Part shown: piece by piece, positions 33,345 to 57,474 of the stretch | Layout: the number at the start of each line of letters is the position of its first letter | Numbering within the stretch: the first letter of the stretch is position 1 | Origin: Fretibacterium sp. OH1220_COT-178 | GTDB lineage: Bacteria > Synergistota > Synergistia > Synergistales > Aminobacteriaceae | Direction of reading: 5' to 3' | DNA: 57,504 bases | NCBI RefSeq assembly: GCF_003860125.1 | Contig: NZ_RQYL01000018.1 | Coordinates: 1 to 57,504, forward strand | Notes under the pieces: model-generated | What the model was told of the DNA's origin: nothing | Databases searched by the model: none | The model's input: only the letters and a program-made list of their open reading frames with translations | Position numbers and translations under genes: made by a program

Positions 33345-34595
33345 TCAGTGCGCCAGCGACCTCATGAACCAGAGGATGTTCGGGATCGCGAACAGGTCGA
33401 TCAGGGCGGCCCCGCAGAGGGGGACGATCAGAAAGGCCTTGTAGGAGACCAGATTGTGGTGGTCGCAGGCCGCCCGCATCATCGAGACGGCGCTCGGCGG
33501 GGCTCCAAGCCCGTGGCCGATGAAGCCGGAGCAGATGATCGCCGCGTCGTAATCCCCGCCCATCAGGGGAAAGATGACGAATACCGTCATCAGGAGGATC
33601 ATGGCGGTCTGAACGGCCAGGATCGCCAGCAGCGGAAGGGCCAGGCCGTAAAGTTCGCCGATCCTGACGCTCATCATCGAGGTGGTCAGAAAGAGGCTGA
33701 CCGATACCGTCGAGATCAGGTCGAGGCACTGGGGGTGGATGCGAACGATCTTCAGGGCGTCGTTCAGGTTGCGGAACGCCACCGCCAGAAACATCGCGCC
33801 CAGATATCCGGGGAAGGTGAAGTTCCCCCAGCCCCAGACCTCTCTGGCCCAGTGCTGCAGCCGATCCGCCCCCCAGCGCCCGAACGCCATCAGGGCCAGG
33901 AGGAGCCCCAACGTGTGGATGAAGTCGTTGATCGTGATGGCCTCCCGCTCCTCGGAGTCGTGGTAGCCCTTCTTGAAGAATTCCAGGTCCGTCGTGAGCT
34001 TCAGATTTTTTCGGCGGACCAGCCAGTCCGCGACGGGGGCCCCCAGGGTGCCTCCGACGATGATCCCGAAGGTGGCCGCCGCCACGGCGACGACCAGCGC
34101 TCCCTCCGCCCCCAGGGATTCGGCCGATGGGCCGAAGATGACGGCCAGGCTGTGCCCGCCCTGGAGGGACACGGCGCCCGCCATGACGCCCAGCAGGGGA
34201 TGGAGTCCGAGGAGCTTTGCGGCCGACACCCCCACGATGTTCTGCAACAGGGCCAGGCCCCAGCAACAACAGAGATAGAGGAAGAGCGTCTCGCCGCCCC
34301 GATGAAAGGCGCGAAAGCTTCCCGTGAGGCCGATTCGGGTGAAGAATACGGCGATCATCGGTATTTGCAGGCTGAGGTCGAAATTGACCGCGGCGACCCC
34401 CGATGCGCTCAGCGAGAAGGTCGTCGCCGCGGCCAGGAGGCCTCCGATGACTCCGGCGGGAATGCACAGGCGCCTGAAGATCTCGTAGCGGTTTCTCAGA
34501 CCGACGCCCAGAAGAAAGAGGAGCGAGGCGATCGCTGCGGTGAACACGGGGTCGAATTGAACGTTCGCAAAGCCTTGAATGCTTGAGACTTCCAT
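33345..34595 (-). CDS. gltS: Sodium/glutamate symporter (first copy)
   Basis: 416 aa with about ten membrane spans in two inverted repeats. The re-entrant loops carry GVMAGAVSLQGGHSLAVIFG and ICSGFIGHGLGAPPSA, the GltS signatures. It imports glutamate with Na+. The start ATG at 34595 has only a weak ribosome site. A near-consensus promoter lies 60 nt upstream, and ptb follows after 47 nt. Confidence 0.92.
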   Translation of the reverse strand: MEVSSIQGFANVQFDPVFTAAIASLLFLLGVGLRNRYEIFRRLCIPAGVIGGLLAAATTFSLSASGVAAVNFDLSLQIPMIAVFFTRIGLTGSFRAFHRGGETLFLYLCCCWGLALLQNIVGVSAAKLLGLHPLLGVMAGAVSLQGGHSLAVIFGPSAESLGAEGALVVAVAAATFGIIVGGTLGAPVADWLVRRKNLKLTTDLEFFKKGYHDSEEREAITINDFIHTLGLLLALMAFGRWGADRLQHWAREVWGWGNFTFPGYLGAMFLAVAFRNLNDALKIVRIHPQCLDLISTVSVSLFLTTSMMSVRIGELYGLALPLLAILAVQTAMILLMTVFVIFPLMGGDYDAAIICSGFIGHGLGAPPSAVSMMRAACDHHNLVSYKAFLIVPLCGAALIDLFAIPNILWFMRSLAH

Positions 34596-34630
34596 ACAAA
34601 TGGTGCCCTTTCCGAATCAGGCTGTCGATT

Positions 34631-34648
34631 GGCCCGGATGTCCGGGCC
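34631..34648. promoter_or_regulatory. Palindrome downstream of the gltS promoter, candidate operator
   Basis: GGCCCGGATGTCCGGGCC is a perfect 8+8 inverted repeat with a 2-bp centre, at about +3 to +20 of the predicted transcript. It fits a repressor site or a small leader hairpin. Confidence 0.45.
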
Positions 34649-34657
34649 CAGGGTCAC

Positions 34658-34686
34658 ATTATATAGAAGCCCCGGACTTTACTCAA
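34658..34686 (-). promoter_or_regulatory. Promoter of gltS-ptb-S9 peptidase
   Basis: Minus strand TTGAGT (34686-34681), exactly 17 bp, then perfect TATAAT (34663-34658). One of the best promoters in the window. Confidence 0.75.
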
Positions 34687-34711
34687 CGGGAGTATTTCTG
34701 AGTATGGGAGG

Positions 34712-34749
34712 GAAAATCCGCCCGGAGGGAAGCCTTGGGGCGGATTTTC
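34712..34749 (-). terminator. Terminator of the proB-proA-gltS operon
   Basis: An 11-bp stem (34712-34722 with 34739-34749), whose outer end gives ATTTTC on the minus strand, 38 nt after the gltS stop. It separates this operon from the next promoter. Confidence 0.6.
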
Positions 34750-34786
34750 GTAGGGCGTTTGGTACCGGTTGCCTCGGGTGGGGAGC

Positions 34787-36061
34787 TCAGGGTGTGACGA
34801 CAGGAAAGGCAGCCGCGAGGCGATTGATGAACCAGACGATGTTGGGGATTCCCACCAGGTCGATCAGCACCGCGCCGCACAGCGGGACGATGAGAAATGC
34901 CTTGTAGGAGATCACTCCGTAGCGCTCGCATACCGCACTCATGTTGGAGACCGCGTTGGGGGTCGCTCCGAGCCCGTGTCCGACGAAGCCGGAGCAGATG
35001 ACGGCCGCATCGTAGTCCCTGCCCAGAAGACGGAAGAGAACGAAAATGGCGATGATCGCGATGCTCAGTACCTGGAGCAACAGAATGGCGATCAGCGGGA
35101 TGGCCAGATCGTAGAGGTCCCAGATGCGCAGGCTCATCATGGCCATCGTCAGGAAGATGCCGATGGAGATGTCCGCGATGAGTTCGATGGCTCGCTCGTG
35201 AAGCCTGACGACCTTGAGTCCATCGTTCAGGTTGCGGAAGATCACGGCTGCGAACATGGCTCCGACGTACCCGGGAAGGGAGAAGTTCTGCCATTTCCAG
35301 ACGTTCTTGGCCTGATCATTGAACCAGCCGGAGGCCATGGAGCCCAGCGCCATGAGGGCGAGCACCAGGGTCAGCATGCGGAAGAGGTCGAAACTGTCGG
35401 TCTCCCTCGACATTGTCTCGAGGTCCGGATGCGTCTTGTAAAGCGCGTCCTGAGAGGCGGAGAGCTCCAGTTTGTTGCGCTGGATCAGCCAGGTTGCCAG
35501 AGGCCCTCCCATGATCCCGCCCGCAATCAGGCCGAAGGTCGCCGATGCGATGGCGACGGCCTTGGCCCCGGCGATCCCCATGGCCTCCGCCGTGGGGCCG
35601 AATGCCGCGGCCGCTCCGTGTCCGCCCTCCAGGGAGACCGCACCGGCCATGACGCCCAGAACCGGATGAATGCCGAAGATCTTGGCCAAGGAGGCTCCGA
35701 ATGCGTTCTGGAACACCGCGAGTCCCCAGCAGGCGCAGAGGTAGACGATCAACGCCCGCCCTCCTTTTTTCAGGAGCCCCAGGCTTCCGCCGATTCCGAC
35801 CGTGGTGAAGAACGCCAGCATCATGGGGCTCTGGAGCGTGGTCTGGAATTTCACCGTGGCTCCGCCCCGATGGTGTAAAAAGAGGGTGATCAGAGCCATA
35901 ACGAGCCCGCCGATAACCGCGGCGGGAATGCTGTAGCGCGTCAGGAAAGCTATTTTGCGCCGGAGTCCGACGCCGATCATGTAGAGGATGGCCGCGATGG
36001 CCGTGGTGAACAAGGGGTCGAAGCTGAGGGTGAACACTCCGTTGATCGTCTCCCAATTCAA
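34787..36061 (-). CDS. gltS: Sodium/glutamate symporter (second copy)
   Basis: 424 aa paralogue of the gene at 33345-34595. Shared signatures are GVMAGAVSLEGGHGAAAAFG and ICSGFVGHGLGATPNAVSNM. It has about ten spans. The start is TTG at 36061 with AAAGGA upstream; internal ATG codons would cut into the first span. It follows proA by 80 nt on the same strand, so imported glutamate may feed proline synthesis (inference). Confidence 0.91.
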   Translation of the reverse strand: MNWETINGVFTLSFDPLFTTAIAAILYMIGVGLRRKIAFLTRYSIPAAVIGGLVMALITLFLHHRGGATVKFQTTLQSPMMLAFFTTVGIGGSLGLLKKGGRALIVYLCACWGLAVFQNAFGASLAKIFGIHPVLGVMAGAVSLEGGHGAAAAFGPTAEAMGIAGAKAVAIASATFGLIAGGIMGGPLATWLIQRNKLELSASQDALYKTHPDLETMSRETDSFDLFRMLTLVLALMALGSMASGWFNDQAKNVWKWQNFSLPGYVGAMFAAVIFRNLNDGLKVVRLHERAIELIADISIGIFLTMAMMSLRIWDLYDLAIPLIAILLLQVLSIAIIAIFVLFRLLGRDYDAAVICSGFVGHGLGATPNAVSNMSAVCERYGVISYKAFLIVPLCGAVLIDLVGIPNIVWFINRLAAAFPVVTP

Positions 36062-38645: not shown

Positions 38646-38734
38646 GAAAACGCTCCTAAAGAGGAAGGGACCGGATTTTTCGTGCTTGCCCTTGTCGAGA
38701 AAAGTTTTGGAACGCCTGAAGGAGAGTGGGTCCA

Positions 38735-39286
38735 ATGTTTGGCTCCGTCCAAGCGGAGAATACGGCTTTTTTGATGGTCGATATCCAGGAGCGCCTGATG
38801 CCCAGTATCGACGGGAACGAGGCCGTGCTGCGGAACGCCGTGCGTCTGCTGACTGCGGCAAAGGTGCTGAAGCTGCCGCTGATCGTTACCGAGCAGTATC
38901 CCAAGGGGATCGGCCCCACCCTGCCCGAGCTGAACGAGCTTGTCCCGGCCGGAACGCCGCGCCTTGAGAAGACGCGCTTCTCCTGCTGCGGGTGCGCCGG
39001 TTTCGACGAGGCGCTCGATGCCCTGGGGCGCTCCGTGACCGTCGTGTTCGGCATCGAGACCCACATCTGCATCCTGTCCACCGTCATGGACCTGATCGAC
39101 CGGGGGCGGAACGTCGTCCTGGCCGCCGACGCCTGCGGCAGCCGCAGTTCGGAGAATCACGCCCTGGCCCTGGACGCGGTCCGGAGGGGCGGAGCCCTCG
39201 TCGTGCCGACGGAGACGGTCGTGTATCGAATGCTGGGGGCCGCGGGCACGCCGGAGTTCAAGGCCTTGCTCCCCCTTTTCAAGTAG
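38735..39286 (+). CDS. Isochorismatase-like cysteine hydrolase
   Basis: 183 aa. The catalytic triad of the family is visible as D16 (MVDIQERL), K79 (RLEKTRFSC) and C112 (GIETHICIL). The cis-peptide region TEQYPKG is present. It is nearest to single-domain hydrolases of the YcaC or nicotinamidase-related group; the substrate is unknown. The start ATG at 38735 is 10 nt after GGAG; a GTG at 38726 overlaps that site and is rejected. Confidence 0.88.
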   Translation: MFGSVQAENTAFLMVDIQERLMPSIDGNEAVLRNAVRLLTAAKVLKLPLIVTEQYPKGIGPTLPELNELVPAGTPRLEKTRFSCCGCAGFDEALDALGRSVTVVFGIETHICILSTVMDLIDRGRNVVLAADACGSRSSENHALALDAVRRGGALVVPTETVVYRMLGAAGTPEFKALLPLFK

Positions 39287-44312: not shown

Positions 44313-45047
44313 TTATTTCTCAATGGGGCCGGAAGGGAGGCCGGGAAGACTTCGAGCATTGCACTCAGGTCCTCTTCCGACAGGCACAGCTTCTCCGACA
44401 CATACGCCACCCAGCCCCTTATTCAGAAGCTCAAAGGCTTCCAGCAACGTGATGTCCGCAAGTTCGTCACAGACGCTGTAAAACAGCTCTCCCGCCGTTC
44501 GCTCGTCCGCATCGAGTCGATTCAGGTACGCCAGCATCACGTAACGCGCGAACACCATGGATATCCACGCGCTCATCGCGTCATAACTGATGGACTGGCA
44601 TTTCCTTGTCGGGCGCAGCAACGACTTGCAGGTTTTGAAAAACACTTCGATACTCCAACGTTTGCCGTAAAGACGAACGACCTCCTCCTCCGAAAGAGAA
44701 CGATCCGTGGGGAGCAGAACCAGATACTCCTTCCGCTTCCTTCGGTTACGGACAAAAACGAGGCGTACGGGAAGCGACTGAAGCTCCGCCTCGAGCGAGT
44801 TGAGGAACCGATAGAAGGTGTCTTTTGCAGCAAAGACGGCGCCTCCTGCACGGAGGGCTTCGAACAGTTTTTTGTGAATGAAGGCCAGCTCGAAGAGTTG
44901 GCGAAAAATTCCGAGCACCGGAATGCCTTTTGTCTTGTAGGCTCCGCTTTTCTTCAGAAGGGAGCCAAGTTTGAAGGCGCTGAAGAAGGACTCCGTTATG
45001 GAAGAGGTTTCGTTTAAGGCAGCAGCGGTTTGTGTTATGATTTGCAT
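44313..45047 (-). pseudogene. IS4-family transposase, internally deleted
   Basis: 244 codons remain of a transposase that in this group is usually over 400. The N-terminal helical part (MQIITQTAAALNETSS... to about residue 83) is joined in frame to the C-terminal part, which keeps the IS4 Y-R-E-K signature: Y127, R130, E134 and K141 in YGKRWSIEVFFKTCK. The middle with the first two catalytic Asp residues is absent. The product cannot transpose on its own. The start ATG at 45047 has GGAGG upstream. Terminal inverted repeats were not found by eye. Confidence 0.8.
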
Positions 45048-45250: not shown

Positions 45251-46018
45251 ATGGAAGACCTATTTGCTCAGAAGGTTTCCTTGGGATTCACCTGGCATAT
45301 CGCGCCCGAAAAGACGAGGACTCTGCATCCACTTGCGGACCGTCAGGACGCTCTTTATGCTTTCGTTCGGGAAATCCCGTCCTATGTTGCATCAACGCTG
45401 CGGACGTTTGAGAACATCAAGACCTCCGATCTCGATGCCAAAATCATCATCGAGTATGGGCGTGGTGTTGCAGATATGCCGACGATGGCCATTCGCACGG
45501 TTGAAAATTATGGGCAAGCATCACGTTATCTGTTTGAACGACTGAAAAACCAGGAATCCTCAACCTTTGCACTCGACCTCGATTTGATCGGCAGACTGCA
45601 CGGAATCTTGGCTCGAGACGAAGTACGACACCCTGGCCAACTGCGCCAAATGCCCGTTCGCATAGAGGAGAGCAGCTACATTCCTCCACCTCCCGCTCAA
45701 ATCCGCGGGATCATGGAACAGGGGCTTGATTTTCTCAACAAAGGGGCTCTGTCTGTCCCAGAGCGCGCATTTGCGACATTTCTTTTTATATCCCGAACTC
45801 AGCCGTTCGAGAATGCGAACAAGAGAACTGCAGCACTGTGCATGAATGCCATTCTGATGTCGTATGGATATCCGGCGGTCGTCATTGAGGGACCGACGCG
45901 TGAGTTTTTGCATTCTATGGCGAACTTCTATGAAACGGCGGCAGCCGACACGGTAATGAACGAGCTATTTGACATGGCTGTTCGGCAACACCACCTTTAT
46001 CTCAATTCCTCGGAGTAA
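45251..46018 (+). CDS. Fic-domain protein with altered active site
   Basis: 255 aa. The Fic fold is clear: the flap PGQLRQMPVRIEESSYIPPPP (residues 128-148) and the active-site loop QPFENANKRTAAL (184-196). In active Fic proteins the loop begins HPF; here His is Gln (Q184), so the usual AMP-transfer base is missing. The anion-binding N190-K191-R192 is kept. It may be inactive, regulatory, or use another reaction. No antitoxin gene is adjacent. The start ATG at 45251 has GGAGGG upstream. It lies between two insertion-sequence remnants and has lower GC than the core genes, suggesting transfer. Confidence 0.88.
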   Translation: MEDLFAQKVSLGFTWHIAPEKTRTLHPLADRQDALYAFVREIPSYVASTLRTFENIKTSDLDAKIIIEYGRGVADMPTMAIRTVENYGQASRYLFERLKNQESSTFALDLDLIGRLHGILARDEVRHPGQLRQMPVRIEESSYIPPPPAQIRGIMEQGLDFLNKGALSVPERAFATFLFISRTQPFENANKRTAALCMNAILMSYGYPAVVIEGPTREFLHSMANFYETAAADTVMNELFDMAVRQHHLYLNSSE

Positions 46019-46096: not shown

Positions 46097-46282
46097 ACGC
46101 TGCTCCCCACGGACTCATTCGCGCGCTATTTGCCCAAGGGACTCGACTTCCGAGAGGTACGCAACGATCATGTTCTGCGAATTGTAGAACGGCTGAACAA
46201 CCGTCCAAGAAAGTGTCTCGGCTTTCGTACCCCGAATGAGGCCTTTTTCAATTTGCCTGTCGCTTTTAGATTGACAATCTAG
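46097..46282 (+). pseudogene. IS30-family transposase, C-terminal remnant
   Basis: From 46109 to the stop at 46280-46282 the frame reads ...ARYLPKGLDFREV, then LNNRPRKCLGFRTPNEAFF and a short tail. That is the conserved C-terminus of IS30 transposases. Just upstream HGLIRA, which matches the preceding NGLIR block, is in another frame, so at least one frameshift is present. The rest of the gene is missing. Confidence 0.8.
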
Positions 46283-46301
46283 CGATCATGATGAAAAAGA
46301 T

Positions 46302-46330
46302 GCTACAAAGCGCTGTCTTGCTGTTAAAAT
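46302..46330 (+). promoter_or_regulatory. Possible extended -10 promoter leading into the cas genes
   Basis: TG at 46322-46323 before TAAAAT (46325-46330) with a weak -35 (GCTACA, 17 bp away). It is the only plausible promoter found before cas6. Confidence 0.35.
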
Positions 46331-46358
46331 CGAGACCATACACACCAACGGTCCCCGT

Positions 46359-46658
46359 ATGGGGACGGTGATTGTTGATGCCTGGGCCGCGTGGGCGGCG
46401 GTCAGAGGCGGACTGTACGCGCTGAGGTCGGGGAGAGAAGTCCATGCTTTGGCTATGGATATCGAGGAGGGGCAGCTGATCTTTCCGGCACCGAACCACA
46501 GGCGAATCCTCGTCCCGATCGCTGCAGCCCGAGAGGTGGCCCTCGGAGCGGGACTGAAGGGTTCGGACGATTTCCTCACGGGGATATACTGGCGGCTGCG
46601 GCTGCTTTCCGGAGATGAGGATGTGTGGCAGGCCGAGCCCCTGGAGATCCTTATTTGA
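46359..46658 (+). CDS. Small protein of unknown function upstream of cas6
   Basis: 99 codons from ATG at 46359, or slightly fewer from the in-frame GTG at 46368; neither has a clear ribosome site. The protein is mostly alpha/beta by composition, with VHALAMDIEEGQLIFPAP and a C-terminal WRLRLLSGDEDVW. I do not recognise a family. GC-rich third positions and an uninterrupted frame to 65 nt before cas6 favour a real gene. It could also be the tail of a gene cut by the nearby insertion events, since the frame stays open upstream of the ATG. Confidence 0.45.
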   Translation: MGTVIVDAWAAWAAVRGGLYALRSGREVHALAMDIEEGQLIFPAPNHRRILVPIAAAREVALGAGLKGSDDFLTGIYWRLRLLSGDEDVWQAEPLEILI

Positions 46659-46722
46659 AGAAGACCCTTTTTTGAAATGGGAACTTTTCCCAAAAACAAT
46701 CTGCTGAGAGGGTGGGGAAATC

Positions 46723-47507
46723 TTGATCTCTTCTCTTGTCCTGTGCGAGGCTCTGTCGGACGGTCACCTTCCTGTCTCGAACGGTTACCTGCTTTTTTCC
46801 GCTTTGACGCGGCGGCCTCGGAGAGGGGCGTCCCGGAGTGTCTGCATGGCGTGTCCGGGTTCAACGGCGCGGCTTTGAGCGCGCTCACGCCGGAGTCCTT
46901 CTGGCGTACGCTGCATTACTCCTGGGGGAAAGGGGTCCTTCAACTTAAAAAGGGCGAAAAGCTGGCCTTTCGCGTTTCCTTCCTGGAGGATGCGCTTCTG
47001 GATTCCTTTGCGCAGGCTGTGGCGGGCTCTTCGCTCACCCTCGGCGGGGCGCCCATCGGGGTCCGACACGTCTCGCGCCCCGGAGAGAATGCGATGAGCC
47101 GACGGGTGAACGAAGAAGAGCTTCGGGAGAGTCCCCCCTGTAATGGGGCTGACGTCGTGTTTCTCTCTCCTTCCGGTTTCAAGAGCGGTTCGGTTCAGAA
47201 CATCCTTCCCGAGCCGATTTTTTGGTTCAGGAGCCTGGCGGCCCGGTGGAAAGCGGCCTATGGGGAGAGCCTGATTGAAGACACGTTGGAAAACACGTTT
47301 GTCGCGGATTACTCCCTGCGAAGTGCGGCGGTCCTGCTGAAGGAGAGCCTCGTCTTTCGGGGCTGTGTGGGACGGATCCGTTATGTCTGGAAAAACGAAA
47401 GAACGGCGGTCAGAAAGGCGCTTGCCTGCCTGACCGCTTTCGCTTTTTTCTGCGGCGTCGGTTACAAGACGACCCAGGGAATGGGGCAGGTGTTGGTGGA
47501 GTTTTGA
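46723..47507 (+). CDS. cas6: Cas6 crRNA endoribonuclease, apparently frameshifted near its start
   Basis: RAMP-fold nuclease that cuts CRISPR precursor RNA. The C-terminus has the Cas6 glycine-rich loop GVGYKTTQGMGQV, preceded by FRGCVGRIRYVW. The N-terminus fits the family only if two frames are joined. From TTG at 46723 (with GAGGGTGGGG upstream) one frame reads ISSLVLCEALSDGHLPVSNG and YLLFSALT. The continuation AASERGVPECLHG lies one base back. One base seems missing between about 46790 and 46815, where there are a run of six T and a GC repeat. Alternatively, ATG at 46677 opens the second frame, but its first 40 residues look non-coding. Cmr1 follows 36 nt later. Confidence 0.8.
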
Positions 47508-47543: not shown

Positions 47544-48839
47544 ATGGGGCGGAGTGTTCCGGAGACGGTGTGCATTGACGGGATTGAAAGTACCGGGCCA
47601 GGCGGCTCCCCGGAAGAACGGGTCTATGAAATCGAGCTGATCACCCCGATGTACGGCGGCGGGGTTGTGGCGGGGGTTGTCGATGAGGAGATGCCGGTGA
47701 GGGCGACCTCTATTCGCGGACATCTGCGATTTTGGTGGCGTTTGCTCTATGGGCTGAAACTGTCCTTAAACGATATGAGAAAGGAGGAAGCCGCAATTTT
47801 CGGAAGCACTCAATCAGCCAGCAAGGTAGCGCTCAGGGTCAGGCTGCCTGATACCCGCTTGAGCTTAAAAGCTATGGCTTCTATTTCAGAAGAAGGCGGA
47901 AAGAAAAAGATTGTTTTTGAAACGGGGAAAAACAAGCTACAGTACGCGATTTTTCCTTTTCAGGGGAAAATCGGAAAAAAAGGAGAACCGGACGTCGCTC
48001 CATCTTTGGCTCTCGTAAACGCGGGATTCAAACTTTTGCTGTCCTTTTCTCCGAAACTTCCAGATGCTCAGAGGGAACAGGTTTTGAATTCCCTCCATGG
48101 ATGGATTAATTTCGGTGGACTGGGGGCTCGGGCACGGCGTGGGTGCGGAGCGCTTTATTCTAAAGACTGCGCGATGGAAAGCACGGAAAATATTTCCAGC
48201 CTTTTAACAGGAGCTCCAGGTATTGAAACTGTTCTGATGGGGAATGTGAAGGATGATGCGGAAAGTGCCTGGTGCGAGATGGTTGGCCTCATAAAGCAGT
48301 TCCGTCAGGGGGCGGGGATAGGGCGAAACGAAGGACAGAGCAAAGAAAAAACAAAAACGCCGGGTCGCTCACGATGGCCGGAGCCTGATACGATTCGAGG
48401 GAAGGTTGAAGCCCATTTGGAGCGCCATGCGCCGACCATGCAAGTTGAGGGATTCCCCCGCGCGAGGTTTGGTATGCCGATCATCTTTCACTTTAAGGAC
48501 AGCGATTTTGGGGGTAAATCCAAACCAGGTATGGACCCGATTGACACGTGTCTACAGCCGGAATCCAGTTCCAGAATGGCAAGCCCCGTTCTTCTCTCTC
48601 CAGTCAAATTGAAAAATGGTAAAGTCGTCCCCATGATCATCTTCTTGAAGACTGGGCCTCTCTGCAGTCTTCTGCTTGAGCGCAGCGACACAAAAGATAC
48701 GTATCCAATTTCTTCTGACCAGATCATCAACCCCAAGTTTTCAACCTACAACAATTCACCGATGAAGGGACGTTCGAATAACGGCGATGCGCTCGAGGCG
48801 TTTAGGGCTTATTTGAAAGAAAGAGATTATAGGAGGTGA
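47544..48839 (+). CDS. cmr1: Type III-B RAMP protein Cmr1
   Basis: 431 aa Cas7-group subunit that caps the target-3' end of the Cmr complex. The N-terminal ATSIRGHLRFWWRLLYG is the hallmark of Cmr1, and FGGLGARARRGCGAL is its glycine-rich loop. The middle section (48100-48800) is less GC-rich and more diverged than the neighbours. The start ATG at 47544 follows AAGGATGG. The stop is 4 nt before cmr2. Confidence 0.93.
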   Translation: MGRSVPETVCIDGIESTGPGGSPEERVYEIELITPMYGGGVVAGVVDEEMPVRATSIRGHLRFWWRLLYGLKLSLNDMRKEEAAIFGSTQSASKVALRVRLPDTRLSLKAMASISEEGGKKKIVFETGKNKLQYAIFPFQGKIGKKGEPDVAPSLALVNAGFKLLLSFSPKLPDAQREQVLNSLHGWINFGGLGARARRGCGALYSKDCAMESTENISSLLTGAPGIETVLMGNVKDDAESAWCEMVGLIKQFRQGAGIGRNEGQSKEKTKTPGRSRWPEPDTIRGKVEAHLERHAPTMQVEGFPRARFGMPIIFHFKDSDFGGKSKPGMDPIDTCLQPESSSRMASPVLLSPVKLKNGKVVPMIIFLKTGPLCSLLLERSDTKDTYPISSDQIINPKFSTYNNSPMKGRSNNGDALEAFRAYLKERDYRR

Positions 48840-48843
48840 GCCT

Positions 48844-50697
48844 GTGAGCCAGGAGGTCAAAAGCTGTCTTCTGCAGCTGAGCATCGGGCCGGTTCAGGAG
48901 TTCATCGCCGCGGCACGGCGCACACGCGACCTGTGGTTCGGTTCGTTCATGCTCTCGGAGATCTCCAAGGCCGCGGCGAAAGCCCTGAAGGATGCCAAGG
49001 CCGAGCTGATTTTTCCCGAACCGGACGGGGACCTGAATCCGAAATCCGAGCTGAACGTCGCCAACGTGATTCTGGCGCGGGTGCATGGCGGCCATGCCGA
49101 GATGAGGGCTTTGTCGGACAAGACGAGGACGGCCGCAGTCGAGCGTTTTAAGGCGTTTGCCGACGAGGCCTATAAAAAGGCGGAGCGTTGTATTGTAAAG
49201 GAACGTTGGGATAAGCAGATCGAAGACGTCATCGAGTTTTATGCCGCCTGGACGGAGATCGGGACGGGGGAGGGGGCCTATAAGGCGGCCCGCCAAAGAG
49301 TGGCCCGCCTGCTGGCGGCCCGGAAGAACCTGCGCGATTTTCTGCCGTATGAGGGGGAGTTCGGGGTTCCGAAGTCCTCGCTGGACGGACTGCGGGAGAG
49401 TGTGTTCAGGGATGGAAAGGTCCCGGCGATTGCGGGATTGCGTCTGAAGGAGGGTGAGGCTCTCGACTCCGTGGGGCTCATCAAGCGCGTTGCCGGGGAC
49501 GAACGTTTCCCGTCCGTGTCGCGCGTCGCCGTGGACCCGTGGGTGCGCGGCGCGAGGGAGGAGACGCTCCGGGTGGAGACGCTCCGGGAGCTGACGCCGC
49601 ATTGTGAGGCACTGGTCAAAGCGGGGGCCATCAGTCGCGTGAGGGGGGGCGAAGCCTTTCCCTATGAGGGGACGGCCGTGCTGCTCTCCCGCCATGCCTC
49701 GATGCTGGCGGAGTGCGGGGATAAGGAGGGGGCGAATGCGGCCTGTAAGGCCATCGCCGAGATATTGTCCCGTCTGCGCCCACAGGACAGGCCTCTGGAG
49801 CCCTATTTCGCCTTGCTGGTCGCCGACGGCGACCGGATGGGCGCGGCGATCTCGGAGATCGGGGACATGGAGAGGCACCAGAAATTCTCCTCGACCCTGT
49901 CGAAATTTGCGGGGAAGGCACGAGAGATCGTCCAAGAGCACAGTGGCGTCTGCGTCTACACGGGAGGGGACGACGTGTTGGCCTTCCTGCCGCTCGACAC
50001 GTGCCTGCCTTGTGCCCGGGAGCTGCACGATGCGTTTGGCGAGCTCCTGAAGGATTATAAGTCCATCAAGGATCAGAGGGCTCCCACCCTGTCCGTGGGG
50101 ATCTCGATCGGACACGCGATGGAGGATTTGGAGGACCTGTTGGCATTCGGCCGCGAAGCCGAAAAGGTTGCGAAGAAGGGGGTGGGGGAAGGGAGCCTCA
50201 AAGCGAAGACGGACCGCAACGGGCTTGCCGTCGTCGTGCGGTCGCGCGGCTCCGGAGCCGTCGTCGTGCGGGAACAGTGGGGAGATAGGGCCGAAGAGAC
50301 GCGAGCCTTGGCCAAGGTCTCCCTGGACGAGCGCCTGCACTATTGGGCGCGTTTGTTCGCCGATGGGGCCATACCCAATAAGTTCCCCTACGAGTTGCGT
50401 GAAAACGTGGAGTTTTACAGGGGATGGGAGGCCGGAGATGTCCTGAAGGCCGCCATGCAGGACGATATAAAACGAATATTCCGTCGCAAGGACGTGAATC
50501 TGAGTGATAAGGAACGGAATCGGGTAGAGACGTACATTGATGCGGCGTTGTGTGGTTCATGCCAGATCGACAGACTACAAAACGAGCTGGTGATATCGCG
50601 GGGTGATGCCCGCGATATCGATAGGCTCTCGGACGAGCTGCTGATCGCTCAATGGATCGGGTTTGGGGTCCGGCAGGCGAAGGGAGGGGACCGGTGA
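48844..50697 (+). CDS. cmr2: Type III-B Cas10 (Cmr2) without an HD nuclease domain
   Basis: 617 aa large subunit. It begins at once with the palm-1 opening LSIGPVQEFIAAARRTRDLW and FGSFMLSEISKAAA. The N-terminal HD DNase domain found in longer Cmr2 proteins is absent. Palm-1 also contains YFALLVADGDRMG. Palm-2 has an intact GGDD at residues 374-377 (CVYTGGDDVLAFLP), the site that makes cyclic oligoadenylates from ATP. Loss of HD with retention of GGDD implies defence through second-messenger signalling rather than target DNA cutting by this subunit (inference from family biochemistry). The start codon at 48844 is GTG, following AGGAGGT. Confidence 0.95.
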   Translation: MSQEVKSCLLQLSIGPVQEFIAAARRTRDLWFGSFMLSEISKAAAKALKDAKAELIFPEPDGDLNPKSELNVANVILARVHGGHAEMRALSDKTRTAAVERFKAFADEAYKKAERCIVKERWDKQIEDVIEFYAAWTEIGTGEGAYKAARQRVARLLAARKNLRDFLPYEGEFGVPKSSLDGLRESVFRDGKVPAIAGLRLKEGEALDSVGLIKRVAGDERFPSVSRVAVDPWVRGAREETLRVETLRELTPHCEALVKAGAISRVRGGEAFPYEGTAVLLSRHASMLAECGDKEGANAACKAIAEILSRLRPQDRPLEPYFALLVADGDRMGAAISEIGDMERHQKFSSTLSKFAGKAREIVQEHSGVCVYTGGDDVLAFLPLDTCLPCARELHDAFGELLKDYKSIKDQRAPTLSVGISIGHAMEDLEDLLAFGREAEKVAKKGVGEGSLKAKTDRNGLAVVVRSRGSGAVVVREQWGDRAEETRALAKVSLDERLHYWARLFADGAIPNKFPYELRENVEFYRGWEAGDVLKAAMQDDIKRIFRRKDVNLSDKERNRVETYIDAALCGSCQIDRLQNELVISRGDARDIDRLSDELLIAQWIGFGVRQAKGGDR

Positions 50698-50699
50698 AC

Positions 50700-51884
50700 A
50701 TGGGAGAGAGTATGAGGTATTTTCGATTGACCCCGTTGAGCCCGCTGATCGCGCGGGACTCCAGGCCCTTCGGCGCGGGGCAGGGGAACCGGGTGCGCTC
50801 GATGGACTGGATCTCCCCGTCGGTCATCGCGGGGGCTGTCCGTACCGCTGTCTGGAAGGAGAAGGACACGCTCACGCCGGAACAACTCAAGACGATCGAG
50901 GTGCACGGCGCCTTTCCGATCGCGGACGAGCAGATTTATTTTCCCCGTCCGCTCGACGCCCTGATCCGTAAGGTGGAGAAAGAGACGGGGATTGCGGATA
51001 TCCTTCGCATCCGTCCGATGGCCCGGGGCGAAGGGCTGGGCGTACCGATGCCCCACGAGAGCCTTGTTCCGTCCGCTCCGGTGGAGATGCCCGAGGAGGA
51101 TTTCAAGCCGGAGCGGAGCGACGACTTCTGGTCTCTGGAGGCGATGGCGAAGTGGCTGGGATGCGAGGAGGATCAGCGGGTCTTGATGAGGATCGACGGA
51201 CTTCCCGCCCCCGTGAAGGAGGACCGCACGAACGTGACGATCCTTCCGGAGAGCGGCGCGGCGGAGGATACCAAGCTGTTCACGACCACGGGGCTGGACT
51301 TCGTGAGGAGGCCCAGGGATGGCGAGTCGAAGGGACGGCTGAGCCAGATGCGGATCGGCGTCCGGGTGAACTTCGGGGATTACACCCTTCTGGCCGGACG
51401 TTTCCTCGTTCCCCTTGGGGGGGAGCGGCGCCTTGCGGAGACGGTGGAGAGCGGAGACCAGGACAAATTCTGGAAGGCGCCCGACGCTTTGAACGTGAGG
51501 TCCGGCAAGGGGTTGCGCATGGTCCTGGCAACTCCGGCCCTCTTTGCGAAGGGCTGGCTTCCGGGCTGGCTTCGCGAGGAGCACGGCAATTTGACGGGGA
51601 CCATACCGGGGAGCGGCGTGTCGGTCCGACTCGTCTCCGCCGTCGTGGGACGCTGGAAGCCCTTGTCCGGCTGGAGCTACGAAAGGGGAAGGAACGGCCC
51701 CAAGGCCCTGCGTCGGATGGTCCCTGCGGGGAGCGTGTATTTCTTCGAGGTATTGGAGGGCGGGGCGGAACTTTCCACGCTTTGGCTCCGTTCCGTCTGC
51801 GACTCCGCACAGGACGGGCGCGACGGGTTCGGGCTGGCCCTCTGGGGGCTCTGGAGCGGCCGTGAATCCGCTCGATGTTTTTGA
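50700..51884 (+). CDS. cmr3: Type III-B RAMP protein Cmr3
   Basis: 394 aa Cas5-group subunit that holds the crRNA 5' handle next to Cas10. Features include LTPLSPLIARDSRPFGAG and DWISPSVIAGAVRTAVW near the N-terminus, and TTTGLDFVRR before a glycine-rich part. The start ATG at 50700 overlaps the end of cmr2 closely and follows GGGAGGGG; an ATG at 50712 and a GTG at 50694 are possible. It has normal length. Confidence 0.92.
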   Translation: MGESMRYFRLTPLSPLIARDSRPFGAGQGNRVRSMDWISPSVIAGAVRTAVWKEKDTLTPEQLKTIEVHGAFPIADEQIYFPRPLDALIRKVEKETGIADILRIRPMARGEGLGVPMPHESLVPSAPVEMPEEDFKPERSDDFWSLEAMAKWLGCEEDQRVLMRIDGLPAPVKEDRTNVTILPESGAAEDTKLFTTTGLDFVRRPRDGESKGRLSQMRIGVRVNFGDYTLLAGRFLVPLGGERRLAETVESGDQDKFWKAPDALNVRSGKGLRMVLATPALFAKGWLPGWLREEHGNLTGTIPGSGVSVRLVSAVVGRWKPLSGWSYERGRNGPKALRRMVPAGSVYFFEVLEGGAELSTLWLRSVCDSAQDGRDGFGLALWGLWSGRESARCF

Positions 51885-51905: not shown

Positions 51906-52805
51906 GTGGTGGATAATACGAAGTTCGAGAAACGCTACTGGATTCATACGGTAACACCGCTTCACGTAGGGACGGGACGGGGCGTTGGTTACATCGACCT
52001 GCCGATAGCACGGGAGAAGGTCACGAACTGGCCCTGCATTCCCGGCTCCGCCGTGAAAGGAGTGGTGGCCGATCATTTCGGGGCTACCGAGGAGGAGAGA
52101 AAGAAGAATGGACTTGTCCGGGCCGCGTTCGGAACGGCCAACGCCTCGGACAGCAATGAGGCAAACAGCACGGCGGGTTCTCTGGTGTTCACGGATGCCC
52201 GTATCGTCTGCCTGCCCGTCCGGAGCTTCTACGGGACGTTTGCCTGGGTGACCTCGCCCTTCTGTCTCGAGCGGCTGAAGCGGGACGCGGGGATGGACGT
52301 GCCGTCCATGAGCGTGGGCTCCGCTGTCCTGACGAAGACGACGAAGCTCGTTCGTGACGGTTCGAGACTCTACCTCGAGGATCTGGATCTCGACTGTAAG
52401 AGGGACGAAAAGGCCGATGCCTGCGCGGAACTCATCGCGGGGGCTGTCTTTGCGGACAGCCCCGAATGGCAGGCCATCTTCCGGGAGAGGCTGGCGATCG
52501 TGAACGACGATATCTTCACCTTTCTGTGCGAGTCCGGCACGGAGGTCAGCGCGCATATCCGGATCGACGAAGCGTCGGGGACCGTTGCAGATGGTGCGCT
52601 CTGGTACGAGGAGGCCTTGCCGGTCGAGGCCCTTCTGGCGGGGACGGTCTGGTGCGATCGCGTGTACCGTAACAAGAATGCAAACGATGAGCTGACGAAG
52701 GAGAAGCTGCTGGAGAATTTCTGTTCCAAGCCCCTCGAACTGCAGATCGGCGGCAAGGCCTCGACCGGCAAGGGGCAGGTACGCTGCCTCTTCCAGAAGC
52801 TGTGA
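51906..52805 (+). CDS. cmr4: Type III-B backbone RNase Cmr4
   Basis: 299 aa Cas7-group subunit present in several copies per complex. It cuts bound target RNA at 6-nt intervals. The RAMP start HTVTPLHVGTGRGVGYIDLP contains the likely catalytic Asp D31, followed by IPGSAVKGVVADHFG. The C-terminus ends with GGKASTGKGQVRC, the glycine-rich loop. The start is GTG at 51906 after GGAGAGGG. All residues expected for RNA cleavage appear intact. Confidence 0.94.
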   Translation: MVDNTKFEKRYWIHTVTPLHVGTGRGVGYIDLPIAREKVTNWPCIPGSAVKGVVADHFGATEEERKKNGLVRAAFGTANASDSNEANSTAGSLVFTDARIVCLPVRSFYGTFAWVTSPFCLERLKRDAGMDVPSMSVGSAVLTKTTKLVRDGSRLYLEDLDLDCKRDEKADACAELIAGAVFADSPEWQAIFRERLAIVNDDIFTFLCESGTEVSAHIRIDEASGTVADGALWYEEALPVEALLAGTVWCDRVYRNKNANDELTKEKLLENFCSKPLELQIGGKASTGKGQVRCLFQKL

Positions 52806-52816
52806 GGAGGTTGGTC

Positions 52817-53152
52817 ATGAGTATTCGGACGAAGGATCAGCAGATGGCCCAGACCGCATTTGAACGCGTCCAGGGCAGGAGCAGTGGGTTTGAGGAATAC
52901 AGCAGTTTCGCCCTCGCGTTCCCGTCGCTGGTACATTCTTGCGGCCTGGCTCAGGCGCTGGCGTTCGCTCAGGCCAAGGGCAGGGCGGACTACCTGTCGG
53001 ATCTGGAGAGGGTTCTGGGCGAGGACGGAGGCGGGGATCTTTGCACGCGGAGCCGGGAGGCGGAGCTGATGGAGTATATGCGCCTCTCGCGCCGTGTCCT
53101 GATGGCCTCGTCCTGGATCAAGCGCTACTGTCAGGCGGAGGGAGGGAACTGA
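52817..53152 (+). CDS. cmr5: Type III-B small subunit Cmr5
   Basis: 111 aa, all-helical. SIRTKDQQMAQTAFERVQ at the N-terminus and FPSLVHSCGLAQALAFAQAK in the middle are the Cmr5 pattern. It fills the minor filament along the crRNA-target duplex. The start ATG at 52817 follows GGAGG. One base separates its stop from cmr6. Confidence 0.93.
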   Translation: MSIRTKDQQMAQTAFERVQGRSSGFEEYSSFALAFPSLVHSCGLAQALAFAQAKGRADYLSDLERVLGEDGGGDLCTRSREAELMEYMRLSRRVLMASSWIKRYCQAEGGN

Positions 53153-53153
53153 G

Positions 53154-54266
53154 ATGCAGGCGCTGAGAGATGCGCTGAAAGACCTCTCCAAAGGGCAGAA
53201 CGCCTCGCTGCTCCTGGCCCGTTACCTGACGGAGACCAAGAGTGGGGAGGAGGAGAAGGAGGCCGCTCAGAGGGGACGGGACGAGCTCTTCCGGGCCGCG
53301 CGCTCCTCGGTGAGGGACGAGGAGGTCCAGGCCCTCTATGCCAGGGCCTTCGAGATGCGGAAGAGCGCGCTGTCGGCCTGCACGTCCTCGCGCATTTTCA
53401 AAACCGAGGGGCGGCTCATCGCGGGGCTTGGGGGCGGCAGTGTGCTCGAGACCGGACTGACCCTGAACCCGCTCTACGGGGCGCCGATGATCCCCGGAAG
53501 CTCCCTGAAAGGGTTGGCCGCTCACTACTGTTCCGAGGTCTGGGGCGCGGAGGACGAACGTTTTCGTTCTCCTGCCCTGGACGGCAGGACGCGTCCGACC
53601 CGGCAGGCGGGGCCCGTCTACGAGGTGCTTTTTGGAAAAGTCCCTCTGTCCCGTAAAGAAAAGGACGCCAAGGCGGGTTTCCTTCGCTTTTACGACGCAT
53701 GGCTCCTTCCCGACTCCCTTCCAAATTCGCTCTGCCCTGACGTCATGACGCCTCATCATAGCGCGTATTACACGGGCGAGGGAGCCCCGACGGACTTCGA
53801 CGACCCCAACCCGGTGACCTTCCTCTCCGTGAAGGGGGCGTTCGAGGTGCGCGTGGGATGCGAGGATCCCGACCCTGAGGTCCGGAAGAAATGGGAGGAT
53901 CTGGCGCTTCGGCTTCTGGGAGAGGCTTTTGAGCGCTATGGTGCGGGCGGGAAGACCCGGTCGGGCTATGGACGGATGCGGCATGAGGAGTCCGAAGAGG
54001 AGAAGCGGGCGCGTCTGCAGGCAGCCCAGCAGGCCGATGCGGAGAAGCGCAGTCGTGAGGCCGGTTTTACTCATCCGATCTGTGAGGAGTTGACGGTTCG
54101 CTGCGACAAGGTCAACAAGAAAGGGAACAGTTCCTTTACGATAGAGGGTAAGGAAGCCCGGTTCGATCCGGTTCTGAAGGTCGATAAGGGAACCGAGGTA
54201 AGGGCGAGGATTGTGGGGGTCGATCTCTCCGGAAAAGGATGCTATGTTTTGGAACGTGTGCCGTGA
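53154..54266 (+). CDS. cmr6: Type III-B RAMP protein Cmr6 with a C-terminal extension
   Basis: 370 aa. The Cmr6 core runs to about residue 275, with GLGGGSVLETGLTLNPLYG, IPGSSLKGLAAHYC and the glycine-rich end GAGGKTRSGYGRM. Usual Cmr6 proteins stop near that loop. Here about 95 residues follow: a charged, probably coiled-coil helix (about 276-303) and then a beta-rich stretch (ELTVRCDKVNKKGNSSF to the end) that looks like an OB or S1-type RNA-binding fold. The extension is unusual and could contact RNA or an accessory protein. It is the last gene of the tightly packed cmr set. Confidence 0.92.
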   Translation: MQALRDALKDLSKGQNASLLLARYLTETKSGEEEKEAAQRGRDELFRAARSSVRDEEVQALYARAFEMRKSALSACTSSRIFKTEGRLIAGLGGGSVLETGLTLNPLYGAPMIPGSSLKGLAAHYCSEVWGAEDERFRSPALDGRTRPTRQAGPVYEVLFGKVPLSRKEKDAKAGFLRFYDAWLLPDSLPNSLCPDVMTPHHSAYYTGEGAPTDFDDPNPVTFLSVKGAFEVRVGCEDPDPEVRKKWEDLALRLLGEAFERYGAGGKTRSGYGRMRHEESEEEKRARLQAAQQADAEKRSREAGFTHPICEELTVRCDKVNKKGNSSFTIEGKEARFDPVLKVDKGTEVRARIVGVDLSGKGCYVLERVP

Positions 54267-54403: not shown

Positions 54404-55540
54404 ATGAACAAGCTTGTCCTGTGCACGACGGGAACCTCTATTGGAGGGGGATGCAAAGAATTCAGGGAAGCGGCGAAAAAGGGCCATCCCTGGGAACATG
54501 AAAGTGTGCCTGGCCTGAAGCAATGTATCCGTGACAGGCTCAAGGACATCGATCTCTCTCAGGATCAGGAACAGAGGAAATGCAGCGCGGAGATGAACTC
54601 GTTGAACCGCCTGAAGCTGTGCGGGGACGACAGGGTGGTGCTTTTGGCCACGGATACGGCCGACGGCCGCGCCACCTCGGAGGTCCTGAGAGAGACGATC
54701 CTGAAGACCTACGGTATGGGCGAAAAACAGGTGGAGCTGAAGCATGTCGTGGGACTCCAGGTTCGGGATTCCAAAAAACTGCGTAAAGAAGGTCTCAGAA
54801 ACTTCGTGAACATTGTGCTGGACTATCTGGCCGATGAGCAGATCCGTTATGAGTATGAGGTGATCCTGAACCCGACGGGGGGATTCAAAGGGGTGGTTCC
54901 CTTCCTTACCACTTTGGGGATGCTCTACCGAAGACGCAGTGTGTATATCTTCGAGCACGCCGAGGAACTGATCGACCTCCCGCCCCTTCCTTTTGCGTTC
55001 GACCTCAACCTCTATCAAAGGGCCCAGAAGGCCTTGCAGCGCATCGAACAGGAGACGGCCGTCCGTGAGGAGATCTTTTTCGACGCTATCGACGGCTATT
55101 GCCCGGAGGAACGCGATTTATTCCTGTCGTTCACGGAACCTGTCGACAGTAGCGGGAACATCACCCTCTCTCCCCTGGCGTTTTGTCTTCTCAAGATTGA
55201 AACCGAAGGGAGCCGCCCGCCAAAAATCCGCTCTCAGGTCAGGGATTTTCTGAAGCGGGATCTCGGCGATTCGGGGAAGATCCTGAGGACCATGATATCC
55301 AACTGCAGCAGTCCCTTGTGGAGGAACACCCATTATCATACCTGGAGCAGGGACAAGACGGATCTGATCATCATGAAACGTTCGGCATCCTCGGAGCGTC
55401 TTGCGGGTTTTCTTCATGAGGGAGTCTTTCACGTCACCCATGCTTTCAGCTCTCACGACAAATATGAGAAGGAGCTCGAGAACACATTCAGAGCAAATTA
55501 CAATCCCAGTGAATTTATGGAATGGACAGCGGACGTTTGA
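54404..55540 (+). CDS. CRISPR-associated CARF protein, APE2256 family, with C-terminal effector-like domain
   Basis: 378 aa. The first 210 or so residues match the APE2256 (TIGR02619) CARF group: LVLCTTGTSIGGG, AEMNSLNRLK, LLATDTADGRA, the ligand-pocket NPTGGFKGVVPFLTTLG and ELIDLPPLPFAFD. Such domains bind cyclic oligoadenylate, and some degrade it. Residues 220-378 form a second domain. Its end (HTWSRDKTDLIIMKR ... FHVTHAFSSHDKYEKEL) has the strand-rich shape of RelE-type RNases; this is a guess, as no catalytic set is certain. The start ATG at 54404 has GGAGGG upstream. It is placed to act as a Cas10-triggered effector or ring nuclease. Confidence 0.82.
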   Translation: MNKLVLCTTGTSIGGGCKEFREAAKKGHPWEHESVPGLKQCIRDRLKDIDLSQDQEQRKCSAEMNSLNRLKLCGDDRVVLLATDTADGRATSEVLRETILKTYGMGEKQVELKHVVGLQVRDSKKLRKEGLRNFVNIVLDYLADEQIRYEYEVILNPTGGFKGVVPFLTTLGMLYRRRSVYIFEHAEELIDLPPLPFAFDLNLYQRAQKALQRIEQETAVREEIFFDAIDGYCPEERDLFLSFTEPVDSSGNITLSPLAFCLLKIETEGSRPPKIRSQVRDFLKRDLGDSGKILRTMISNCSSPLWRNTHYHTWSRDKTDLIIMKRSASSERLAGFLHEGVFHVTHAFSSHDKYEKELENTFRANYNPSEFMEWTADV

Positions 55541-56976: not shown

Positions 56977-57474
56977 ATGGAGGATTGCGTAATAAAGGAG
57001 ATGGGGCAGGACGTGGGAGAGGATGCACCGGAGAAAAAGGTGTTGTTGTCGTTTGTGGGAATGCGGGACCCGTACCCGGACGATAAATCGGGAGCTCCGG
57101 ATACATCGTCTTCGGGTAGTATCCTGACGCTTTGCAGAGAGTTGAAGTTGGACAGCGTGTATCTGTTCCCGTCCAGTAAAAAGAAGGCTAAAAATCCAAA
57201 AAATCAAACAGAGGACAGGGCTTACGAGGTAAAACGTATATTGAAGGAACAAAGAAAAAGTCCCGAATGCCATATACTTCCTTTAGAGGTAAAGGATGTT
57301 ACGGATATTCAAGAACTTTATAAACATTTCAAGAATAATCTTCTCAGTGTTCTCAACAGCTTGTCCTCCTGGCATCCGAAAGGCCTGTCCGGCTACAAAT
57401 TTTATTTGGTTCCTCGTTATTCTGTGTGGGTAAGGAACTATTCAGTCAAATTCAAATGTCCTGCGACGAGGTAA
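56977..57474 (+). CDS. RtcR-like CARF-domain protein, possibly frameshifted
   Basis: 165 aa to the TAA at 57472-57474. VLLSFVGMRDPYPDD, SILTLCRELKLDSVYLFPSS and LPLEVKDVTDIQELYKHFK follow the CARF domain seen in RtcR and related CRISPR sensors. After GYKFYL (about 57411) the usual SSGT-x-Q pocket motif should come, but the frame gives an unrelated tail. A fitting continuation (QIQMSCDEVNHIDEGL) lies in another frame and stays open to the window end. The gene may be broken, or a sequencing indel may be present. A GTG at 57040 after GGAG is an alternative start. GC content is low compared with the core genes. Confidence 0.65.
   Translation: MEDCVIKEMGQDVGEDAPEKKVLLSFVGMRDPYPDDKSGAPDTSSSGSILTLCRELKLDSVYLFPSSKKKAKNPKNQTEDRAYEVKRILKEQRKSPECHILPLEVKDVTDIQELYKHFKNNLLSVLNSLSSWHPKGLSGYKFYLVPRYSVWVRNYSVKFKCPATR

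What the first reader, a model, noticed from the sequence alone, without database searches (positions are those of the whole stretch)
46723..46878. cas6 N-terminus lies in a different frame from the rest
TTG at 46723 with a good ribosome site opens a frame encoding a Cas6-like start (LPVSNGYLLFSAL) that ends at 46878. The remaining Cas6 is one frame back. Either a base was lost at the T6 run or GC repeat (about 46790-46815), or the ribosome slips by -1. If cas6 is broken, the locus would need another processing enzyme.
Basis: seen in the sequence. Interest (0 to 1): 0.6.

Follow-up and report, generated by a model that had tools for sequence, protein, structure and literature searches.

The report
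Broken CRISPR RNA-processing gene beside Cmr genes
A bacterium's gene for cutting CRISPR guide RNA carries a one-base frame break that close relatives lack, so it is probably an ordinary, recently broken (or mis-sequenced) gene whose job a second copy elsewhere in the genome could do.

Summary
In detail: the start of this type III-B cas6 lies in the TTG-46723 frame, the rest one frame back. Fretibacterium fastidiosum, the closest held relative with the gene, reads it in one frame from the homologous TTG and has the same T6 run, so T6 is not where the frame is lost. By homology the break lies in 46816-46826 (11 bases here, 12 there). The 46677 N-terminus is spurious: F. fastidiosum has a stop in that frame, and 9 of 9 conserved N-terminal residues lie in the TTG frame (1 of 9 in the other). 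Both halves are under purifying selection, so the break is very recent or a sequencing error. No slip signal was found. The six cmr genes are open. The III-B repeat and reverse transcriptase were not found in this genome, whose only cas1 is type I-B; an IS30 remnant abuts the locus. The genome has an intact I-B system with its own Cas6 and 161 repeats whose last 8 bases match the III-B ones at 7 of 8. Most likely: a recently inactivated, dispensable cas6, with the Cmr complex able to live on I-B crRNAs, a known kind of sharing. Interest is low.

The parts
46723..46878 (+). Reading frame holding the true Cas6 N-terminus (homologous to F. fastidiosum Cas6 residues 1-31), TTG start, ends at an out-of-place TGA
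46816..46826 (+). Interval in which the frame is lost by homology: 11 bases here, 12 in F. fastidiosum
46827..47507 (+). Rest of Cas6 (residues 36-266), PF10040 domain, one frame back
46677..46722 (+). Spurious upstream extension of the C-terminal frame (ATG 46677); F. fastidiosum has a stop codon in this frame
46793..46798 (+). T6 run proposed as slip site; identical in F. fastidiosum, which stays in frame
46130..46282 (+). C-terminal remnant of an IS30-family transposase
   Evidence: best annotated hits are IS30 family transposase
46290..46658 (+). Truncated remnant (about the last 40%) of the 295-aa gene that precedes cas6 in F. fastidiosum
44313..45047 (-). DDE transposase (PF01609)
47544..48839 (+). 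cmr1
   Evidence: TIGR01894
48844..50697 (+). cmr2/cas10, GGDD motif present
50652..51884 (+). cmr3
51906..52805 (+). cmr4
52802..53152 (+). cmr5
53154..54266 (+). cmr6
54404..55540 (+). CRISPR-associated protein of the Cas_APE2256 family (PF09651, TIGR02619)

Best explanation
This is an ordinary type III-B cas6 that has very recently lost one base between 46816 and 46826, just after the conserved GYLLFSAL stretch. Translation from the conserved TTG stops after 51 residues, so no normal Cas6 is made. Shown: the frame split, its position by homology, that relatives are intact, and that it is the only split gene among those of the locus that could be compared. Shown: F. fastidiosum's III-B repeat was not found in this genome, and only one cas1 (of the I-B type) was found. 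Shown: an intact I-B system with its own Cas6 and a large array is present. Inferred: the III-B Cas6 had become dispensable once its own array and adaptation genes were gone. Inferred: if the Cmr complex still works, it uses crRNAs cut by the I-B Cas6.
For: F. fastidiosum (G005, NC_021038.1) reads the gene in one frame of 266 aa from the homologous TTG; G001 and G026 also read the N-terminus in one frame. tblastn places the shift between 46815 and 46827. The compared cmr genes read in one frame: cmr2-6 nearly full length, cmr1 over its first 210 residues. No other window gene compared with F. fastidiosum is split: 10 genes in 23091-43793, so gross assembly noise is not evident; all 90 I-B repeats of C31 are exact, with spacing 65-69. 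dN/dS between window and F. fastidiosum is 0.06 (cas6 residues 1-31) and 0.23 (36-266), against 0.14-0.37 for the cmr genes, so the break is recent. Locus erosion: an IS30 remnant fused to the truncated upstream gene; the III-B repeat 28-mer absent at up to 3 mismatches; the 11-mer GTTTCAATCCC 2 times in G000 against 47 in G005; the III-B-associated reverse transcriptase absent; one cas1, on C31, type I-B. Second Cas6 at C31, TIGR01877 107.8 bits over the cut-off 58.65; 161 I-B repeats. Last 8 bases of the repeats: ATGGAAAC (I-B), ATTGAAAC (F. fastidiosum III-B).
Against: A sequencing or assembly error would look identical, and no reads or second isolate were available. The purifying-selection signal in both halves fits an intact gene with an error as well as it fits a recent mutation. 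The genome is a draft of 105 contigs, so an array or cas genes could be missing, and the III-B repeat could have diverged by more than 3 of 28 bases. Use of I-B crRNAs by this Cmr complex is not shown.
Confidence: 0.58

Rival explanations
1. Sequencing or assembly error: the real gene is intact and makes a normal III-B Cas6.
For: Both halves are under purifying selection; a single-base difference in a G+C-rich stretch next to a GCGGCGGC repeat; all relatives covering the N-terminus are intact.
Against: No other split gene among the 10 further window genes compared nor in the cmr genes as far as compared; the interval holds no homopolymer of 5 or more; the locus shows independent signs of erosion.
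Confidence: 0.33
2. Programmed or fortuitous -1 slippage restores a full-length Cas6 from the split gene.
For: The needed direction is -1 and a T6 run lies upstream, within the overlap of the two frames; both halves are conserved.
Against: T6 is read in the zero frame as CTT TTT TCC, not a canonical X XXY YYZ heptamer (motif recalled). The same run is present in F. fastidiosum, which must not slip. A slip at T6 would replace the SALxRRL stretch that the relative has. No downstream fold beyond chance: z +0.33 and -0.98. Not conserved in relatives.
Confidence: 0.03
3. The ORF from ATG 46677 is the real gene: a Cas6 with a new N-terminus.
For: It is open for 276 codons and keeps the His of LHG and all of the PF10040 domain.
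Against: Only 1 of 9 conserved N-terminal residues over the same DNA; F. fastidiosum has a stop in that frame; the TTG start and its context are conserved in F. fastidiosum, and the TTG in G001. Fold models were of too low confidence to help.
Confidence: 0.06

Closest known systems
Fretibacterium fastidiosum type III-B locus (NC_021038.1)
   Same: Same gene order cas6-cmr1-6, about 76-91% protein identity over the compared stretches, same TTG start
   Different: cas6 intact; cas2, a reverse transcriptase and cas1 upstream, and a 36-base-repeat array with 47 copies of the 11-mer GTTTCAATCCC, none of which was found beside the window locus
[quoted passage not shown]
   Same: Cmr module without a clear cas6, beside a type I system whose Cas6 and array supply crRNAs
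   Different: There the sharing was shown by experiment and the III-B system has its own array and RT-Cas1; here sharing is inferred, the partner is I-B, and cas6 is present but split
[quoted passage not shown] 2013, as cited in PMC12814883, passages read)
   Same: One Cas6 feeding more than one system
   Different: Archaeal, I-A partner; original paper not read
cas6 frameshift mutant of Staphylococcus aureus type III-A (PMC5687920, passages read)
   Same: A single insertion with frameshift in cas6 among cas mutants arising under self-targeting
   Different: Laboratory selection; no second Cas6 was mentioned in the passages read

Membership tests
Cas6 (PF10040 / TIGR01877) | C-terminal Cas6 domain above the curated cut-off | tested here: met
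   PF10040 58.6 bits, cut-off 25
Cas6 (PF10040 / TIGR01877) | TIGR01877 equivalog score above the cut-off | tested here: not met
   45.2 bits against 58.65; the intact F. fastidiosum protein also falls short, at 49.8, so this does not mark the break
Cas6 (PF10040 / TIGR01877) | Whole protein, N-terminus included, in one reading frame | tested here: not met
   N-terminus in frame +1, rest in frame +3
Cas6 (PF10040 / TIGR01877) | Cleavage of repeat RNA | not testable with these tools
   needs an assay
Type III-B (Cmr) system | cmr1-cmr6 with Cas10/Cmr2 | tested here: met
   cmr3 and cmr5 are just below their NCBIfam cut-offs (97.6/100.4, 26.3/27.9) but above Pfam's
Type III-B (Cmr) system | Own repeat array (common, not strictly required) | tested here: not met
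   no repeat array in the window; F. fastidiosum III-B repeat not found in G000 at up to 3 of 28 mismatches
Programmed -1 frameshift gene | Slippery heptamer in the zero frame | tested here: not met
   CTT TTT TCC at 46792-46800
Programmed -1 frameshift gene | Stimulating RNA structure downstream | tested here: not met
   z +0.33 and -0.98
Programmed -1 frameshift gene | Frame split conserved in relatives | tested here: not met
   0 of 4 relatives with a match are split; 3 of the 4 matches include the N-terminus

The most novel reading that the evidence does not exclude
The frame split is used: low-level slippage yields a little full-length Cas6, so that the Cmr complex is normally fed by the I-B array and the locus's own Cas6 is made only on demand.
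Probability: 0.03. Interest if true: 0.6.

Novelty: new member of a known kind. Interest (0 to 1): 0.17.

Why it matters
If the mutation is real, it is a fresh natural example of a III-B effector losing its own crRNA-processing gene in a genome that keeps an intact I-B Cas6 and array. That fits the known picture of promiscuous type III modules living on type I guides, and it would allow a clean test of how closely the repeat-derived tag must match. If it is a sequencing error it matters only for annotation.

Tried and rejected
T6 as slip site: rejected, identical and read straight through in F. fastidiosum. ATG 46677 as true start: rejected. RNA structure downstream: nothing beyond chance. Structure prediction of the F. 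fastidiosum protein and of ORF 46677: mean pLDDT 36 and 37, uninformative, so no fold search was made. PDB sequence search: the listed hits, Cas6 entries, start at profile position 81 or later and say nothing about the N-terminus. Search for a second copy of the DNA to compare the base count: none in viral contigs, phages, plasmids or elsewhere in the genome. The genome-contig scan returned only F. fastidiosum. The Rfam scan found nothing. Five paper searches (listings only; passages read in three papers) listed no title or opening abstract lines about this cas6; most listed papers were not opened. A first DNA alignment on the wrong strand was redone. Reinitiation at TTG 46875 (the TGA overlaps a TTG in the Cas6 frame) was considered: it would give a protein without the first part of Cas6, the conserved His of LHG included, and was not pursued.

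Full report
What is there. The window is the whole of contig C18 of a 2.86-Mb draft genome (105 contigs, 99.96% complete). It carries a type III-B locus: cas6, cmr1-6 and a Cas_APE2256-family protein. TTG 46723 opens a 51-codon frame ending at TGA 46876-46878; the rest of Cas6 lies in the frame of ORF 46677-47507.

Which N-terminus is real. The closest relative with this gene, G005, matches NC_021038.1, Fretibacterium fastidiosum. It encodes Cas6 of 266 aa in one frame from the homologous TTG. Its residues 1-31 match 46723-46815 in frame +1 at 94% and residues 36-266 match 46827-47504 in frame +3 at 80%. G001 and G026 also read the N-terminus in one frame. In 81 genomes of the family, 5 including the window's own have a match; of the 4 others none is split, and 3 of the 4 matches include the N-terminus. 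Of 9 residues invariant in three relatives (G005, G001, G026; positions 2-31), the TTG frame keeps 9 and the 46677 frame 1; F. fastidiosum has a stop in the latter frame, G001 does not over the same stretch.

Where the frame is lost. Between 46815 and 46827: 11 bases here against 12 in F. fastidiosum (sequence). The T6 run at 46793-46798 and the stretch around it are identical in F. fastidiosum, which reads straight through. A slip at T6 is therefore not the natural reading; the RNA downstream folds no better than shuffles.

How old it is. Nei-Gojobori dN/dS between window and F. fastidiosum is 0.06 for residues 1-31 (31 codons, a small sample) and 0.23 for 36-266 (226 codons), against 0.14 to 0.37 for the six cmr genes, cmr1 in part. 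Both halves were selected as protein in their own frames until recently. The data therefore allow a recent mutation or an error, not an old pseudogene.

Error or mutation. The cmr genes that could be compared are unbroken; cmr1 could be compared only over its first 210 residues because the F. fastidiosum record has a run of N there. Ten further window genes between 23091 and 43793 with F. fastidiosum counterparts are each in one frame in the window, while one of them (38720-39283) is split in F. fastidiosum. All 90 I-B repeats of C31 are exact with spacing 65-69. These make a noisy assembly unlikely but cannot exclude one wrong base. No second copy of the DNA was found.

Context. In F. fastidiosum the locus has cas2, a reverse transcriptase and cas1 upstream (cas2 named by its position and look) and a 36-base-repeat array further on. 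In the window the same side ends in a truncated copy of the 295-aa gene fused to an IS30 remnant, with a Fic-family gene and a DDE transposase beyond. In the whole genome the III-B repeat is not found (the 11-mer is there 2 times against 47 in G005), the reverse transcriptase is not found, and the only cas1 is on C31.

The other processing enzyme. C31 holds a type I-B system: Cas6 (TIGR01877, 107.8 bits), a large protein in the cas8 position that matched no NCBIfam model, cas7, cas5, cas3, cas4, cas1, cas2 and an array; 161 repeats in the genome. PF10040 alone misses this Cas6, which belongs to PF01881. The last 8 bases of the I-B repeat (ATGGAAAC) and of the F. fastidiosum III-B repeat (ATTGAAAC) agree at 7 of 8; that these become the crRNA 5' tag is general knowledge, not tested here.

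Interpretation. A recently broken, dispensable cas6 is the best-supported reading (0.58), sequencing error next (0.33). Sharing of type I crRNAs by a III-B module is known: M. mediterranea III-B uses I-F crRNAs and lacks a clear cas6 (PMC5576922, passages), and one Cas6 serving I-A and III-B in S. islandicus is cited in PMC12814883 (passages). A cas6 frameshift among cas loss-of-function mutants is reported in S. aureus III-A (PMC5687920, passages). So the finding is real as an observation and ordinary in kind.

Noticed in passing
L012:3482-5821: F. fastidiosum III-B adaptation module has a separate 338-aa group-II-intron-like reverse transcriptase between cas2 and cas1 (TIGR04416 254 bits, below its cut-off of 300; PF00078), suggesting spacer uptake from RNA; the module is not beside the window's locus.
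   Followed up: partly
window 38720-39283: The F. fastidiosum counterpart of this 186-aa gene matches the window from two different frames, so it looks split in that record while the window gene is open.
   Followed up: no
window 54404-55540: Cas_APE2256-family CRISPR-associated protein right after cmr6; with the GGDD of Cmr2 this suggests cyclic-oligoadenylate signalling (inference).
   Followed up: no
window 56977-57474: 165-aa ORF at the contig end downstream of the CRISPR genes (MEDCVIKEMGQDVG...) with no Pfam match; what lies beyond is cut by the contig end.
   Followed up: no
G000:C10:138-2391 and C31:24640-30630: The I-B repeats lie on at least two contigs (161 in all); on C10 there is a gap of about 1.3 kb between repeats at 565 and 1893.
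   Followed up: no
window 45251-46018: Fic-family gene between transposase genes or remnants next to the truncated upstream gene.
   Followed up: no
window 33345-36061: Two adjacent paralogous genes (416 and 424 aa), 77% identical at DNA level over 218 bases.
   Followed up: no
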